Assembly: GCF_011634835.1 (NCBI RefSeq)
Contig: NZ_SIRP01000001.1
Coordinates: 248,001 to 312,000 of the forward strand
Source of the DNA: Isoptericola sp. BMS4
GTDB taxonomy: Bacteria; Actinomycetota; Actinomycetes; Actinomycetales; Cellulomonadaceae
Reading direction: 5' to 3'
DNA length: 64,000 nucleotides
Positions 5,932-11,644 of the stretch are shown here, one piece after another. How positions within the stretch are numbered: the stretch's first letter is position 1; every line of letters begins with the position of its first letter. The notes beneath the pieces were generated by a model. The model saw only the letters and a program-made list of their open reading frames with translations, was not told the DNA's origin and ran no database searches. Position numbers and translations under genes: made by a program.

Positions 5932-7084
5932 CGCGCACGCCGACGTCCTCGTCGTCGGGGCCGGGCTCGCGGGCCTGCACACCGCGCTGTCGCTGGCCCG
6001 GCGCGGGCACGACGTCGTCCTGGCCGACCGGCGCACCCGCCTGGACGTCGCGGTGCGCACCACCGGCATCTTCGTGCGGCGCACGCTCGAGGACTTCGAG
6101 CTGCCGGCCGCGCACCTCGGCCCGCCGGTGCGCCGCATGGTGCTCTACCCGCCGTCGCACCGTCGGCCGGTGACCCTCGACAGCGCGCACGACGAGTTCC
6201 GCGTCGGCGACATGGCCGCGCTGTACCTGGACCTCGCCGCGCGGGCTGTCGCGGCCGGGGTCCGCCTCGAGCTGGGCACCCGGTACCGGGGGCGCGACGG
6301 CGGCGACCACGCGCTCGACGGGCCCCGCGGCCGCCTGCGGGTGCGAGCCCCCTTCGTCGTCGGGGCCGACGGCGCACGCTCCGCCGTCGCGCGCGAGCTC
6401 GGCCTCGACGTCAACCGCGAGCTGCTGGTCGGCGCCGAGGAGGTCTTCGCCCTGCCTGGCCGGGACGCCGTCCCGGCGTTCCACTGCGTCGTCGACCCGC
6501 GCCTCGCGCCCGGCTACCTCGCCTGGGTGCTCGACGACGGCCACCACGCCCACGTCGGCGTCGCCGGGTACGCGCACCGCTACCCGGACGGGATGCGCGC
6601 GGCCCTCCGGCGGTTCGCCGCGACGGCGCCCGGCCTGGACGGGGTCCCGACGCCCGGCGCCGTCGAGCGCCGCGCCGGGCCCATCCCCGTGGGCGGCCTG
6701 CTGCGGCGCATCGCGAGCCCTGACGGCCTGCTGGTCGGCGACGCCGCCGGGGCGGTCTCCCCCCTGACGGCGGGCGGCCTCGACCCCTGCCTGCGCCTGT
6801 CGGAGCGCGGCGTCGACGTCCTCGACGCCGCGCTCCGTGCCCGGGACCGCCGCCTGCTGGCCCGGTACGACGGCGCCGACCTGCGCGCGAAGTTCCGCGG
6901 GCGGCTCGCCCTGCGCCGCAGCCTGTCCCTGGTCCGCACGCCCTCCGTCGCGGCGGCGGGGGTGGCGGCCCTGCGCACCCCGCCCGGCCGCGCCGCGGCC
7001 CGGCGCATCCTGTTCGGCCACGGCTCGTTCCCCGACCCCGCGCCGAAACCCTCAGCGGCTCGTGCGGCCACCGTCGCTCAGTAG
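5924..7084 (+). CDS. FAD-dependent oxidoreductase, geranylgeranyl reductase-like
   Basis: The 386-residue protein opens with a dinucleotide-binding motif (VLVVGAGLAGLHTALSLARRG, residues 7-27). A second FAD motif, GLLVGDAAGAVSPLTAGGLDP, lies near residue 270, as in the geranylgeranyl reductase/PHBH-like family. Such enzymes reduce or hydroxylate lipids and isoprenoids; the substrate cannot be told. It overlaps the XRE gene by eight bases. Its 3' end overlaps the YoeB remnant by seven bases, so the operon may end in rearranged DNA. Confidence 0.8.
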   Translation: MSDAHADVLVVGAGLAGLHTALSLARRGHDVVLADRRTRLDVAVRTTGIFVRRTLEDFELPAAHLGPPVRRMVLYPPSHRRPVTLDSAHDEFRVGDMAALYLDLAARAVAAGVRLELGTRYRGRDGGDHALDGPRGRLRVRAPFVVGADGARSAVARELGLDVNRELLVGAEEVFALPGRDAVPAFHCVVDPRLAPGYLAWVLDDGHHAHVGVAGYAHRYPDGMRAALRRFAATAPGLDGVPTPGAVERRAGPIPVGGLLRRIASPDGLLVGDAAGAVSPLTAGGLDPCLRLSERGVDVLDAALRARDRRLLARYDGADLRAKFRGRLALRRSLSLVRTPSVAAAGVAALRTPPGRAAARRILFGHGSFPDPAPKPSAARAATVAQ

Positions 7085-7277
7085 TGGAAGCGCGCCTGGA
7101 CGATCGTGACCGTCTCGTCGTCGACGTGGTAGACCAGCCGGTGCTCCTGGGTGATTCGTCGTGACCAGACGCCCGTGCCCTCGTGCCGGAGCGGCTCCGG
7201 CTTGCCCGTGCCCTCGGTCAGCATGCGCAGACACTCGTTGATCAGCGCGTTGATCCGTCGGAGAATCGTGCGGTCCG
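7078..7277 (-). pseudogene. YoeB toxin remnant, 5' end missing
   Basis: The minus strand encodes the last 65 or so residues of a YoeB/Txe mRNA interferase: DRTILRRINALINE, then EGTGKPEPLRHEGTG, VWSRRITQEHRLVYHV and a C-terminal ARFHY followed by a stop. The key Glu, Arg and His residues and the C-terminal Tyr are present. Similarity stops abruptly near 7277, where about 20 N-terminal residues should follow. Instead a YefM remnant begins on the opposite strand. No start codon or ribosome site is placed for it. Confidence 0.8.
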
Positions 7278-7417
7278 CACCACAAGGACGGCAGCGCGGT
7301 CATCATCAGCGAGGACGACTACGAGGCGCTGCAGACGAGCCTCTACCTGCGTTCGACGGCTGCCAACGCCCAGCGGCTCGACGAGTCCCTGGCTCAGCTG
7401 CGTGCCGCGCCTTCCGA
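7278..7417 (+). pseudogene. YefM antitoxin remnant, inverted relative to YoeB
   Basis: The plus strand from 7278 reads HHKDGSAVIISEDDYEALQT, then SLYLRSTAANAQRLDESLAQ. This is the middle and C-terminal part of a YefM/Phd antitoxin. The N-terminal DNA-binding half is missing, and the frame runs on without its proper stop. In intact modules yefM lies upstream of yoeB on the same strand. Here the two fragments abut back to back at 7277/7278, so an inversion or complex deletion has occurred. Confidence 0.75.
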
Positions 7418-7436
7418 TCGGTTCGTGCGCCGACCC

Positions 7437-8627
7437 TCAGCGCGCGGTCCGGCCACGGACGGCCAGCACGGCCCCGGCCGCGACGACGCAGACGACGGCG
7501 GTCGTGAGCAGCCCGACGGAGAAGCTCGTGCCCGCGGCGACGAACCCGACGACGAGCGACCCGAGCCCGGTGCCGGCGTCGAACCCGATGTTCCACACGG
7601 CGCTGGCGGTGCTGTGCGCCCGCTGCGGCACGGCGGCGAACGCGGCCACCAGGGTGAGGTTCTGCAGACTGCCGTAGGCGGTGCCGACCAGCGCCATCCC
7701 GAGCACGAGCACGACGGGCCGCGTTCCGCCGTCGGCGACCGCCCACGCGCACAGCACCAGCCCGGCCGCGCACACGGCGAGCAGCGGCGCCATGAACACG
7801 CGCGGCCCGTAGCGGTCGGCGAAGGAGCCGATCCCCCAGCGGGAGAGCGCCGTCGTGCCGGTGAAGGCGAGCAGGCCGGCGACGGCGAGCGCCGCACCGG
7901 CGAACTGCGGGGCGAAGGTCAGCAGCGCCCCGCCCGGCGTCGTCACTGCCAGCAGCACCAGGGAGGGCATGACCAGGGCGAGCACCACCCGGCCGCGCCC
8001 CGGCCCGGCCGTGGCGGAGGCCTCCTCGGTCTCCTCGGCGTCGAGGCGGTCGAGCCGTCGCCCCAGCGCGGCCGCGAACGGCACCGCGAGCGCGGGCAGC
8101 GCGCCCAGGGTGAAGGCGACGCGGAAGTCGAGGTCGGCGATCCAGGCGGCGCTCGGCACCAGGACGAGCTGCGGGAACGCGATCGACAGCCCGTACAGTC
8201 CGATCGCCCTGCCGTGCCGCGGACCGTCCACCAGCGCGGCGACGGCGCTCGACCCGCAGACGGTGAGGATCGCGAACCCCGTGCCCCGGACGGCGGACAG
8301 GGCCAGCAGCCACGGCAGCTGGTCGGTCGTCATGAACAGCAGCGACGGGACGCCGAGCAGCAGCACCCCCGCGATCAGGACCGGGCGCCACCCGATCCGG
8401 CGCAGCGCCGTCGGCACGGTCGTCTGGGTGAGGACGGTCGCCAGCATGAGGACGGCGTTGACCAGGCCCGCGCCGCCCTCGTCCGCTCCCCCGCGCACGG
8501 CCCACAGCGGCACCGACGGCAGCAGCAGCGCGTACCCGGCGAAGCCCAGCGCGGACATCGCCAGCAGGGGCCGGAACCCCGGCACCGTGGTGATCGGCTC
8601 GGGGGACGCGGGGGCGGGGCGGCGCAT
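7437..8627 (-). CDS. MFS transporter, 12-TM drug-efflux type
   Basis: The 396-residue protein has 12 hydrophobic segments. The start is the ATG at 8627. It opens GFRPLLAMSALGFAGYALLLPSVPLW, has the loop-2 motif A remnant LRRIGWRPVLIAG, and a central loop rich in Glu/Asp/Arg (LGRRLDRLDAEETEEAS). It resembles proton-driven exporters of the YcaD/arabinose-efflux type. The substrate is unknown. No regulator is adjacent. Downstream lie the TA remnants, with no clear terminator. Confidence 0.8.
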   Translation of the reverse strand: MRRPAPASPEPITTVPGFRPLLAMSALGFAGYALLLPSVPLWAVRGGADEGGAGLVNAVLMLATVLTQTTVPTALRRIGWRPVLIAGVLLLGVPSLLFMTTDQLPWLLALSAVRGTGFAILTVCGSSAVAALVDGPRHGRAIGLYGLSIAFPQLVLVPSAAWIADLDFRVAFTLGALPALAVPFAAALGRRLDRLDAEETEEASATAGPGRGRVVLALVMPSLVLLAVTTPGGALLTFAPQFAGAALAVAGLLAFTGTTALSRWGIGSFADRYGPRVFMAPLLAVCAAGLVLCAWAVADGGTRPVVLVLGMALVGTAYGSLQNLTLVAAFAAVPQRAHSTASAVWNIGFDAGTGLGSLVVGFVAAGTSFSVGLLTTAVVCVVAAGAVLAVRGRTAR

Positions 8628-8755
8628 CCGGTCGAATCTACCGTGCGCGGCGTCGGCGACCCTTCCCCGCGGCGGTCGACGCCTCCGGACGCGGTCGTCC
8701 CGGCGTGGGAGCCGTGCGGGAGAACGTGCGTCGACAACGCCCGCGTCGTGGCACG

Positions 8756-8802
8756 AGAATGGCCGCGCCGCACCATTCACGGTGCGACGCGGCCGGAATT
8801 CT
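8756..8802 (-). terminator. Hairpin terminator after the 26-residue peptide gene
   Basis: GGCCGCGCCGCACC at 8761-8774 pairs with 8781-8794 with a single mismatch and a six-base loop. The outer arms AGAAT and ATTCT (8756-8760 and 8798-8802) extend the stem. It starts about six bases after the stop codon of the small peptide gene on the minus strand, so it most likely ends that transcript. Confidence 0.65.
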
Positions 8803-8807
8803 CGGAC

Positions 8808-8888
8808 TCAGAGGCCCAGCGCGGCCAGGATGTCCGACAGTGCGCCGGAGACGGCGGCCAGCAGGTCGTTGAGCACGTCAGAAAGCAT
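8808..8888 (-). CDS. 26-residue amphipathic acidic peptide
   Basis: A minus-strand gene from the ATG at 8888 to a TGA at 8808 encodes a 26-residue peptide opening MLSDVLNDLLAAVSGALSD and ending ALGL. Leu, Val and Ile recur every three to four residues, so it would form one amphipathic helix with three Asp and no basic residue. A GGGGG purine site lies eight bases upstream, a promoter (TTGCCC, 17 bases, TAGGGT) further up, and a strong hairpin follows the stop. I recognise no family. A signalling, surfactant-like or membrane-active peptide is possible. Confidence 0.6.
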   Translation of the reverse strand: MLSDVLNDLLAAVSGALSDILAALGL

Positions 8889-8957
8889 TGGAATTCCCCC
8901 CGTATCGGATGTGGATCATCTCGACTGCACCGCCCCCATTCGGGTGCGGCGATTGCC

Positions 8958-8986
8958 ACCCTAAGATTGCTCGGACGAACGGGCAA
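8958..8986 (-). promoter_or_regulatory. Promoter of the 26-residue peptide gene
   Basis: On the minus strand TTGCCC (8986-8981) is followed after 17 bases by TAGGGT (8963-8958). This matches the housekeeping spacing, and TANNNT is the commonest actinobacterial -10. It predicts a leader of about 60 bases before the ATG at 8888. Confidence 0.5.
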
Positions 8987-9068: not shown

Positions 9069-10088
9069 TCATGAAATGGCGGGCCCGGGGGCGCTCGCGC
9101 GCACGACCAGCTCGGGCACGTGCGCCACGGGCCCGGTGTCCGCCACCTCTCGCCCGAGGCGCGCGAGCAGCAGCCGCGCCGCGGCACGGCCGATGGCGGC
9201 ACGCGGCTGGCGCACGGTGGTGAGCGGCACGGCCGAGTAGGCCGCGTAGGGGATGTCGTCGTACCCGACCAGGGCCACGTCGCCCGGCACCCGGACGCCG
9301 CCCGACAGGAGCGCGTGCTCGACGCCGAGAGCGTGCATGTCGTTCGTGGCGAACACGGCGTCGGGGCGCTCCCGCGCCGGAGTCGCCACGATCGCGCGGC
9401 CCACCGCCTCGCCGAGGCCCAGGCCGAGGTCGGGCGAGCGCACGACCTCGAGCGTGGCGCCCGGAACCGCCGCGACCACCTCCCGGAAGCCCTCCTCGCG
9501 CCGGGCTGTCTGCTGGACCCCGCGCGGGCCCGTGGCGACCATGAGGCGCCGCCGCCCGGACGCGAGCAGGTGGTGCGCCGCGGCCCTGCCGCCGGCACGG
9601 TGGTCCACGAGGACGCCGTCGAGCCCGTCCTGCCCGCCCCCGTCGTCGACCAGGACCACCGGCGTACCGCGGCCGTCGACCTCCCGCAGCTCCGCCGCCT
9701 CGGCGTCGGGCGTCGCCACCAGCACCCCGTCGACGCGCATCTGCTCGAACAGCCCGAGCAGCGTCGTCTGCTTGCGCGCCGACTCGTGCGCGCTGCTCAC
9801 GACGACGGACAGGCCGGCCTCCTCGAGCGCACCCTCCGCCGCCGCGACGACGTCGGCGAAGTACGGGTTGGCGGCGTTGACCACGCACATGCCGACGACG
9901 CCGGAACGCCCCCACCGCAGCTGGCGTGCCGAGAGCCGCGGCACGTAGCCGAGCTCCTCGACCACGGCGCGGATGCGCGACGACGTGGCCGGCGACACCT
10001 TGTGCGGCCGGTTGAGGAAGTTCGAGACCGTCCCGGCCGAGACGCCGGCGTCGCGCGCGACGTCATGGATGGAGACCACGGGAAGCAC
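9069..10088 (-). CDS. LacI-family transcriptional regulator
   Basis: The 339-residue protein carries the LacI DNA-binding domain at its N-terminus (SIHDVARDAGVSAGTVSNFL, then RAVVEELGYVP). A periplasmic-binding-protein-like sugar sensor domain follows, with AIVATPARERPDAVFATNDM and DVALVGYDDIPYAAY. Both the GTG at 10088 and another at 10079 are possible starts. It is divergent from the DUF2809-VanY gene. Its effector is unknown; with two LacI proteins in the window it could act on the pectin region or on its own neighbour. Confidence 0.85.
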   Translation of the reverse strand: MLPVVSIHDVARDAGVSAGTVSNFLNRPHKVSPATSSRIRAVVEELGYVPRLSARQLRWGRSGVVGMCVVNAANPYFADVVAAAEGALEEAGLSVVVSSAHESARKQTTLLGLFEQMRVDGVLVATPDAEAAELREVDGRGTPVVLVDDGGGQDGLDGVLVDHRAGGRAAAHHLLASGRRRLMVATGPRGVQQTARREEGFREVVAAVPGATLEVVRSPDLGLGLGEAVGRAIVATPARERPDAVFATNDMHALGVEHALLSGGVRVPGDVALVGYDDIPYAAYSAVPLTTVRQPRAAIGRAAARLLLARLGREVADTGPVAHVPELVVRASAPGPAIS

Positions 10089-10168: not shown

Positions 10169-11644
10169 GTGGCTCCCCCCGACGATCCCGGCACCGACGC
10201 GACCCCGCCGGCCCGCGCGCCCCGCGTGACGACAGCGGTCCTCGCGGCGGTCGTGCTCCTCGCGGGGCTCGGTGCCCGGGCCGTGCTCCCCGCCGCGGTC
10301 GGCGGGCCGGCGGGCGACACCCTGTACGCGACGCTGGCGGTGCTGCTCGTGGCGCTGGTGGTCCGCCGCCCGCTCCCCGCCGCCCTCCTCGGCCTCGTCC
10401 TCTGCGCGGCCGTGGAAGCGCTCCAGCTCACCGACCTCCCGGGGCGCGCCGCCGACGCGGTCCCGCAGGCCCGCTACGTGCTCGGCAGCACGTTCCACGC
10501 GCCCGACCTCGGCTGGTACGCGCTGGGGGCGGCGGTCGGCTGGGCGGCGCTCGCCCTGGCGGTGCCCGCGCGCCGCCACGAGCGCCACACGCGGTCGGCG
10601 CCCCGCCGCGGCCGCCTCGCCCTGCTGCTCGTCCCGGTCGTCGCGCTCGGCGCTGCCGGCGGCGAGCTCGCGGCGTCGATGGGGGCGGAGGCGGACGCGC
10701 TCGCGGTCGCCGTCGCCGACGGGGAGGACGCGCTGACCGGCTCCGAGGGCCGCGTCGACGACGAGTCGGTGCGGGACGCGATGGCGGAGTCGCTCGACGA
10801 CGCCCGGGCGGTGCTCTCCGCCACGCCGGTGCTCGAGCGGCGACCCGGCGCGGCGACCCGGGCGCGCGAGCGCGTGGCGGACGCCGCCGACGCGCTGCTG
10901 GACTCCCGCCACCAGTTCGCTCGGAGCCAGGCGAACGCCACACGCGACGCCCTCGCCGAGTTCACCGCCCGGGGCGATACCGTGCTCGCTGCCACGGAGG
11001 GCCTCGGCGCACCGCGCGCGCCCCGGGAGGCCCTGCGGTCCGCGCTCGAGAGCGCGGACACCGCCCTGGCCGCCGCGGCGCCCACGCTCCTCGACGCGGC
11101 CGAGCTCGCGGAGATCGAGCAGATCACGGCAGAGCTCGCCGACGGTGTCCCCGCCGTCGAGCAGGCGACGACGGCCCTGATGACGGCACAGGACGCCGTA
11201 ACCTGCCCGGAGGACGACCAGCTCTGGTTCCCGGGGGCCGGGCGGCTGGCCGACGACGAGCTCGCGGCGATCCCGTGGGACCCGGAGTACTCCGTGCGCG
11301 CGGACGTGCTGGACGGCCTCGTGGCCCTGGACGAGGCGTACCGGGCGCGGTTCGGCGAGCACCTCACGATCAACTCCGCGTACCGGTCCTACGAGCAGCA
11401 GGTCGCGGTGTACAACCCGGCGGACCCGAACCCCCTGGCCGCGCCACCGGGCTGCTCCAACCACGGCCTGGGCACCGCCGTCGACCTGGGCGGCGGCGTG
11501 CAGACGTTCGGCAGCGCGCAGTACGAGTGGCTGAAGGCGCACGCCGCGGAGCACGGCTGGACCCACCCGGGGTGGGCCGAGCCGGACGGCCGGCTCCCCG
11601 AGGCGTGGCACTGGCAGTCGGTGGAGACGCCCGAGACGTACTGA
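10169..11644 (+). CDS. DUF2809-VanY (M15B) fusion, membrane D,D-carboxypeptidase
   Basis: The 491-residue protein starts at the GTG at 10169, seven bases after TAAGGT, so it may be leaderless. Residues 20-130 hold four membrane segments with the DUF2809 signature (VEALQLTDLPGR, LGSTFHAPDLGWYALG). Another hydrophobic segment lies near 150, followed by a long alpha-helical stalk (about 165-345). The C-terminus is a VanY/M15B peptidase with INSAYRSYEQQ, CSNHGLGTAVDLG, GWTHPGW and EAWHWQ carrying the zinc His/Asp ligands. It probably trims peptidoglycan D-Ala-D-Ala outside the membrane. The fusion with DUF2809 is unusual. Confidence 0.8.
   Translation: MAPPDDPGTDATPPARAPRVTTAVLAAVVLLAGLGARAVLPAAVGGPAGDTLYATLAVLLVALVVRRPLPAALLGLVLCAAVEALQLTDLPGRAADAVPQARYVLGSTFHAPDLGWYALGAAVGWAALALAVPARRHERHTRSAPRRGRLALLLVPVVALGAAGGELAASMGAEADALAVAVADGEDALTGSEGRVDDESVRDAMAESLDDARAVLSATPVLERRPGAATRARERVADAADALLDSRHQFARSQANATRDALAEFTARGDTVLAATEGLGAPRAPREALRSALESADTALAAAAPTLLDAAELAEIEQITAELADGVPAVEQATTALMTAQDAVTCPEDDQLWFPGAGRLADDELAAIPWDPEYSVRADVLDGLVALDEAYRARFGEHLTINSAYRSYEQQVAVYNPADPNPLAAPPGCSNHGLGTAVDLGGGVQTFGSAQYEWLKAHAAEHGWTHPGWAEPDGRLPEAWHWQSVETPETY

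What the first reader, a model, noticed from the sequence alone, without database searches (positions are those of the whole stretch)
8756..8986. Unannotated 26-residue amphipathic peptide gene with full transcription signals
A consensus promoter, purine-rich ribosome site, short frame encoding an anionic amphipathic helix and a strong terminator occur in order within 230 bases, between a LacI gene and an MFS exporter. Standard annotation would miss it. The exporter downstream on the same strand could be relevant if the peptide is secreted.
Basis: partly seen in the sequence, partly recalled or inferred. Interest (0 to 1): 0.6.

Follow-up and report, generated by a model that had tools for sequence, protein, structure and literature searches.

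The report
Orphan 26-residue amphipathic helix gene
A very short, so far unnamed bacterial gene that probably makes a 26-residue, acidic, leucine-rich helix that lies on membranes; similar free-standing mini-genes exist in another actinobacterial family, but the neighbouring exporter is probably not its partner.

Summary
On the minus strand, 8808-8888 encodes MLSDVLNDLLAAVSGALSDILAALGL, with a purine-rich ribosome site, an actinobacterial-type promoter (TTG...TANNNT) and a 14-pair GC hairpin after the stop. The promoter is not a sigma-70 consensus, and the hairpin has no U-run. Among 4138 short start-to-stop frames in 464 kb of this genome, five entries at two loci have a comparable acidic amphipathic design; this is one of the loci. 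No clean counterpart turned up in the other held genomes of its genus and family. A free-standing 28-residue gene of the same design occurs in 3 of 5 genomes of one genus in another family of the order (55% identical over 22 residues, same C-terminal end). There it is under purifying selection (dN/dS about 0.27) between fixed neighbours. Common ancestry is plausible but unproven: a pattern-keeping shuffle gives p = 0.016. The MFS link is not supported. In seven genus mates the MFS sits elsewhere without the peptide, with its own near-leaderless promoter. Leucine attenuation is unlikely, because the terminator folds at every stall position. Best reading: an autonomous small membrane-surface peptide, possibly surfactant-like (PSM/LspU-like). 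Expression, export and function are untested.

The parts
8958..8986 (-). likely promoter, TTGCCC-17 nt-TAGGGT (-35 at 8981-8986, -10 at 8958-8963)
   Evidence: pattern TTGNNN-16/18-TANNNT found here; not reported by the sigma-70 scan
8896..8901 (-). purine-rich ribosome site GGGGGG, 7 nt before the ATG
   Evidence: sequence
8808..8888 (-). 26-residue peptide gene MLSDVLNDLLAAVSGALSDILAALGL, stop included
   Evidence: frame; GC by codon position 0.77/0.38/0.88, high at third positions like its neighbours; outlier among small frames; related genes in another family
8761..8794 (-). GC hairpin after the stop codon, 14 pairs, -33.2 kcal/mol, no U-run: probable terminator
   Evidence: formed in the MFE with the ribosome stalled at any codon
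9014..9069 (-). hairpin right after the LacI gene, probable LacI terminator, separating LacI from the peptide gene
   Evidence: fold -25.8 kcal/mol
9069..10088 (-). LacI-family regulator (neighbour; no link shown)
   Evidence: Pfam PF00356, PF13377
7437..8627 (-). MFS transporter (neighbour; link not supported)
   Evidence: Pfam MFS_1; 74-82% identical in 7 genus mates without the peptide beside it
8635..8640 (-). -10-like box TAGATT of the MFS gene, 7 nt before its ATG
   Evidence: similar box 6-7 nt before the ATG in 7 genus mates

Best explanation
The locus is an autonomous, single-gene transcription unit for a 26-residue peptide. A promoter at 8986-8958 makes an RNA of about 190 nt, ribosomes start at the ATG behind GGGGGG, and transcription ends at the hairpin 8794-8761. 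The peptide has no signal sequence (by inspection) and no basic residue. Large hydrophobic residues recur every 3-4 positions over its whole length, with Ser/Asp/Asn on the other face, so it should fold into one helix lying on a membrane surface or on another hydrophobic surface. Its job is most likely at that interface: a leaderless surface-active or surface-anchoring peptide, comparable in working to staphylococcal PSM/LspU peptides, or a small partner of a membrane protein. Shown here: the frame, its signals, its outlier composition, and a selected gene of the same design in another actinobacterial genus. Inferred: transcription, translation, helix and membrane binding. Open: export, target, benefit. 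The MFS next door is probably an accidental neighbour.
For: Frame and order of signals. Moment reached by 616 of 100000 permutations. One of two loci, among 4138 small frames in 464 kb of own genome, with this acidic amphipathic design. Find by peptide search in 396 genomes of the order: a 28-residue free-standing frame, 55% identical over 22 residues and ending at the same point, with its own ribosome site and a strong hairpin behind it. That gene is in 3 of 5 genomes of its genus, between a rhamnogalacturonan lyase family 11 gene and the same downstream genes, with 3 synonymous and 0 other changes in one pair and dS 0.76, dN 0.21 in another.
Against: In its own genus and family the frame was found in this genome only. 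With the peptide in 221 family genomes, 8 have a match at E 1 or better: own and 7 inside frames of 124-2117 residues. With the profile in 220 genomes, 99 have a match at E 1 or better, none a clean short gene among those looked at. So selection on the window copy itself cannot be measured. With the large-hydrophobic pattern kept, 1590 of 100000 shuffles of the window peptide score as well against the 28-residue peptide and 16962 of 100000 against the third one, so likeness may be convergence. The E-value of the cross-family hit is only 0.72 for one genome. The G462 version falls just below my own amphipathic cut-off (moment 0.242 against 0.25). Promoter and terminator are weak by textbook measures. 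No transcript or protein data.
Confidence: 0.62

Rival explanations
1. Type I toxin-like peptide: a membrane peptide that depolarises the producer's own membrane, held down by an antisense or structured RNA (works like TisB).
For: Size and one-helix amphipathic design resemble the 29-residue TisB (PMC11449926, passages). Isolated gene with a folded 5' leader. A promoter-like site on the opposite strand, 8731-8760, could drive an antisense RNA.
Against: TisB, ZorO, AapA1 and SprG1 depend on C-terminal positive charges (PMC11449926, passages); this peptide and its two relatives have no Lys or Arg. This is not decisive: the same passages say that the rule varies, IbsC having one dispensable charge and Fst relying more on its N-terminal ones. 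No antitoxin RNA is shown, and Rfam at gathering thresholds finds nothing in the window.
Confidence: 0.12
2. Leader peptide of a leucine-responsive attenuator that controls the gene downstream.
For: 11 of 26 residues are Leu, Val or Ile (sequence); a hairpin and then a gene follow on the same strand. A 26-residue branched-chain-rich leader of ilvD is known in S. aureus (PMC12607899, passage).
Against: The terminator forms in the MFE with the ribosome stalled at each of 26 codons, and likewise for all 28 codons of the G443 gene (MFE only). The MFS has its own promoter and no such leader frame in 7 genus mates. No Rfam family matches the window. The downstream gene here is an MFS of unknown substrate; in G443 it has no Pfam match.
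Confidence: 0.06
3. Secreted antimicrobial or signal peptide exported by the adjacent MFS.
For: Same strand and adjacent; leaderless peptide.
Against: The MFS is conserved in 7 genus mates without the peptide beside it and has its own promoter. No exporter among the neighbours checked in the other genus. No LacI-MFS block in those genus mates.
Confidence: 0.05
4. No small protein: a non-coding RNA or a chance frame between two terminators.
For: No second copy found in its genus or family; weak promoter by consensus; the transcript folds better than most shuffles (z -2.37, 2 of 200 shuffles as good).
Against: Ribosome site, third-position GC of 0.88, outlier helix design and a selected coding counterpart elsewhere.
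Confidence: 0.12

Closest known systems
28-residue gene MAELLALLNGLLGTVSGLLDSLLAALPL in an unnamed genus of another family of the same order (L088/L095/L096; L097 variant)
   Same: free-standing, ATG with ribosome site, no basic residue, Leu-rich amphipathic helix, same C-terminal end (AALxL), strong hairpin behind the stop
   Different: two residues longer, different neighbours (rhamnogalacturonan lyase upstream), found in 3 of 5 genus members; common ancestry not proven
Phenol-soluble modulins and LspU of Staphylococcus
   Same: short amphipathic alpha-helical small proteins; LspU was likewise missing from annotation (PMC12607899, passages)
   Different: no match to any curated family; different phylum; no Pmt/AbcA link tested; no Lys or Arg at all; expression and secretion unknown here
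TisB-type type I membrane toxins
   Same: about 29 residues, amphipathic helix, own transcript
   Different: lacks the C-terminal positive charges on which TisB, ZorO, AapA1 and SprG1 depend (PMC11449926, passages); no antitoxin RNA shown

Membership tests
Phenol-soluble modulins (PSM) | 20-45 residue leaderless amphipathic alpha-helix | tested here: met
   26 residues; moment reached by 616 of 100000 permutations; no signal sequence by inspection; the size range is recalled; the helix itself is inferred from sequence
Phenol-soluble modulins (PSM) | sequence match to a known small-peptide family | tested here: not met
   0 families up to E 10 in NCBIfam, Pfam and PHROGs
Phenol-soluble modulins (PSM) | secretion through Pmt/AbcA-type ABC transporters | not tested
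   feature from PMC12607899 passages; no search for such a transporter was made
Phenol-soluble modulins (PSM) | surface activity on membranes | not testable with these tools
   needs peptide biochemistry
TisB-like type I toxins | C-terminal positive charges | tested here: not met
   no Lys or Arg in the peptide or in its two relatives; requirement for TisB, ZorO, AapA1, SprG1 from PMC11449926, which also names toxins that differ
TisB-like type I toxins | antisense or cis RNA antitoxin | tested here: inconclusive
   one opposite-strand promoter-like site 8731-8760; no Rfam match at gathering thresholds
Leucine/branched-chain attenuator leaders | alternative antiterminator when the ribosome stalls in the leader | tested here: not met
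   14 of 14 terminator pairs kept at all 26 stall positions in the MFE; MFE only
Leucine/branched-chain attenuator leaders | downstream amino-acid biosynthesis or transport operon | tested here: inconclusive
   downstream gene is an MFS of unknown substrate with its own promoter

The most novel reading that the evidence does not exclude
A dispersed, unrecognised class of actinobacterial mini-genes, each a lone 26-28 residue acidic Leu-rich helix with its own promoter and terminator, encodes surface-active peptides that coat the cell's own membrane or hold secreted hydrolases at the cell surface. In the second genus the gene lies directly behind a rhamnogalacturonan lyase gene, much as LspU and LspD flank the sal1 lipase in Staphylococcus.
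Probability: 0.15. Interest if true: 0.65.

Novelty: new variant of a known kind. Interest (0 to 1): 0.4.

Why it matters
Genes under 30 codons escape annotation. This one points to a free-standing acidic amphipathic helix, without any basic residue, that is kept under selection in at least one actinobacterial genus and has a look-alike in another family. It gives a concrete, cheap test case for small membrane-surface peptides outside Firmicutes.

Tried and rejected
DNA search with the 221-base locus in 58 relatives gave the own copy plus 12 matches of 24-54 bases in 11 other genomes, with no sign of homology. The genome-contig scan with LacI gave one distant Streptomyces locus. tblastn with both peptides in plasmids and with the 28-residue peptide in phages found nothing. 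The PDB search gave one match at E 4.4, taken as chance. At order level 30 of 396 genomes have a peptide match: own, G443 and 28 others in frames of 60-9292 residues, taken as chance.

Short-frame matches read one by one and rejected: L086; L068, L109, L119; L146, L147, L172, L177, L234, L235; and 20 further stretches fetched and read. None of these 20 is a clean counterpart. G956 (L250) is the nearest: a 33-residue frame that from a GTG would give 30 residues, with a part-length match and one basic residue; left open. L168 was read at a wrong offset and read rightly as L255. Of the profile searches, 99 of 220 family, 114 of 396 phylum (E 1) and 117 of 359 order genomes (E 0.5) have a match; I looked only at the shorter frames named above, not at every frame under 100 residues, and the listing was cut. 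The held sets overlap and are samples, so absence elsewhere is not shown. Structure prediction was not run, because the tool takes single proteins of 30 residues or more.

Literature: searches listed no paper that I recognise as being on this peptide. Listings were seen; passages were read in three papers and the abstract and outline of one. That is no proof that it is not in print.

Full report
What is there. The window is from a high-GC actinobacterial genome (4.43 Mb, 47 contigs; 'actinobacterial' is inferred from its genes and relatives). The genus is not named by any tool. One genus mate is a single contig of 3,307,740 bases, which I recall as the size of Isoptericola variabilis; that is recall only. 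On the minus strand the order is: LacI-family regulator (10088-9069), a hairpin right behind it (9069-9014), a promoter-like TTGCCC-17-TAGGGT (8986-8958), a 5' leader of about 60-70 nt, GGGGGG, the frame 8888-8808, a 14-pair hairpin (8794-8761), then the MFS gene from 8627.

How good are the signals. Against the E. coli sigma-70 consensus the promoter is weak and was not reported by the scan. The terminator scan also found nothing, because there is no T-run. Against the looser actinobacterial pattern (recalled) the site is one of five in the window where random sequences hold 1.15 on average, and a Markov copy of the intergenic stretch has such a site 1.75% of the time. The hairpin is -33.2 kcal/mol. 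Streptomyces terminators are reported to have long stable hairpins and few Us (PMC12207403, passages). GC by codon position in the frame is 0.77/0.38/0.88, against 0.82/0.52/0.95 for LacI and 0.75/0.57/0.98 for the MFS.

Is the peptide unusual. MLSDVLNDLLAAVSGALSDILAALGL has three Asp and no Lys or Arg. Its helical moment is reached by 616 of 100000 permutations. In the window plus 20 stretches of 20 kb from the same genome (464 kb), 4138 start-to-stop frames of 18-45 residues (nested starts counted apart) were scored. Five entries at two loci pass a filter for acidic charge, hydrophobicity and moment: this frame (two starts) and L199:11058-11189 (three starts), which looks like a small membrane protein or its tail. 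The filter was chosen after seeing the peptide. In 665 kb of other loci, 6 of 8240 entries pass. Three of these are the 28-residue gene below (two genomes, one of them in two overlapping loci); the other three are unrelated frames. The G462 version of that gene does not pass (moment 0.242).

Conservation in its own family. The peptide search found the own copy and 3 other genomes with matches inside frames of 279-906 residues in 98 relatives, and 7 others inside frames of 124-2117 residues in 221 family genomes. A three-sequence profile matched 99 of 220 family genomes at E 1, the best other match lying in a 654-residue frame. The short-frame matches that I read were no counterparts. The MFS is 74-82% identical in seven genus mates (G004, G011, G006, G009, G012, G008, G005). 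Around it there is no peptide-like frame in the fetched stretch (best scores 20-30 against 117 for self), and a TANNTT box stands 6-7 nt before the ATG, as in the window (TAGATT). The closest LacI homologues (56-59% in 12 of 17 genus mates) and VanY-like genes (49-58% over most of the length in 12 of 17) lie at other places than the MFS in those seven genomes. So the neighbourhood is a mosaic, and the frame cannot be tested against conserved flanks.

A counterpart in another family. In 396 genomes of the order, 30 have a match at E 1 or better. Apart from the own copy, one matches a frame of nearly the same length: G443, MAELLALLNGLLGTVSGLLDSLLAALPL, E 0.72, 55% over 22 residues, ending at the same residue. 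The E-value alone would not be convincing. The gene structure is what speaks for it: free-standing, AAAGGA before the ATG, a strong hairpin behind the stop. Searching with this peptide, 51 of 149 genomes of its family have a match at E 1, but only three are strong (E 3e-6 or better), all in its own genus, that is 3 of the 5 held genus members. G632 has the identical peptide with 3 synonymous and no other changes. G462 has MAELLALLTGLLSTVTGLLDGVLANLPA with dS 0.76 and dN 0.21; identity is 61/84 in the frame, 128/208 upstream and 61/106 downstream. The neighbours are the same in all three (by eye): upstream a gene that in G443 is a rhamnogalacturonan lyase of family 11, ending about 180 nt before the peptide; downstream a gene without Pfam match at 0.001, then further on a MaoC-like gene and murB (Pfam on G443 only; one 157-residue gene in between was not searched). 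So a gene of this design is under protein-level selection in that genus, as far as three sequences can show.

Homology or convergence. Aligned from the C-terminus the window peptide shares 14 of 26 residues with the 28-residue one and 10 with the third. Free shuffles reach those scores in 0 and 25 of 100000, but shuffles that keep the positions of large hydrophobics do in 1590 and 16962 of 100000. Common ancestry is plausible, not shown.

Mechanism. The design argues for a helix lying in a membrane interface. PSMs and LspU of Staphylococcus are of this design (PMC12607899, passages). TisB-like toxins are similar in size, but TisB, ZorO, AapA1 and SprG1 depend on C-terminal positive charges, while Fst and IbsC follow other rules (PMC11449926, passages); such charges are absent here. 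A leucine attenuator was tested by folding the transcript with a ribosome stalled at each codon: all 14 terminator pairs form every time in the window, and 17-18 in G443. Together with the MFS's own promoter this makes attenuation unlikely. The exporter link rests on adjacency alone.

Verdict. A probable real small-protein gene without a match in Pfam, NCBIfam and PHROGs, of a known kind of design, in an acidic variant without basic residues.

Noticed in passing
window 7078-7440: Remnants of a toxin-antitoxin pair: a 48-residue minus-strand frame matching the last half of YoeB (PF06769, 2.7e-21, profile positions 36-80 of 80), next to plus-strand sequence that reads like the end of a YefM/Phd antitoxin (by eye). 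Both look truncated.
   Followed up: no
window 8731-8760: Promoter-like site on the plus strand (TCGACA-18-GAGAAT) pointing into the hairpin and the peptide gene from the far side; could make an antisense RNA.
   Followed up: no
window 10169-11644: Fusion of a DUF2809 membrane domain with a VanY-type D-Ala-D-Ala carboxypeptidase domain, with long matches (49-58%) in 12 of 17 genus mates.
   Followed up: partly
L199 11058-11189 (own genome): 43-residue acidic frame MVIFLIYAVVTNPDAAANIVEAIWEFILSAFTGFGQFFANLAS, perhaps the end of or a whole small membrane protein.
   Followed up: no
L246 3783-6592 (G443): The 28-residue peptide gene lies about 180 nt behind a rhamnogalacturonan lyase family 11 gene, with the same order in three species, which recalls the small amphipathic proteins beside the sal1 lipase in S. 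aureus.
   Followed up: partly
L250 (G956:C222:2300-3050): A 33-residue frame, GAEVLGTVTGLVAELLAVMPESLTGLLRTATTW, matched in part by the profile; could be a short gene from a GTG or chance.
   Followed up: partly
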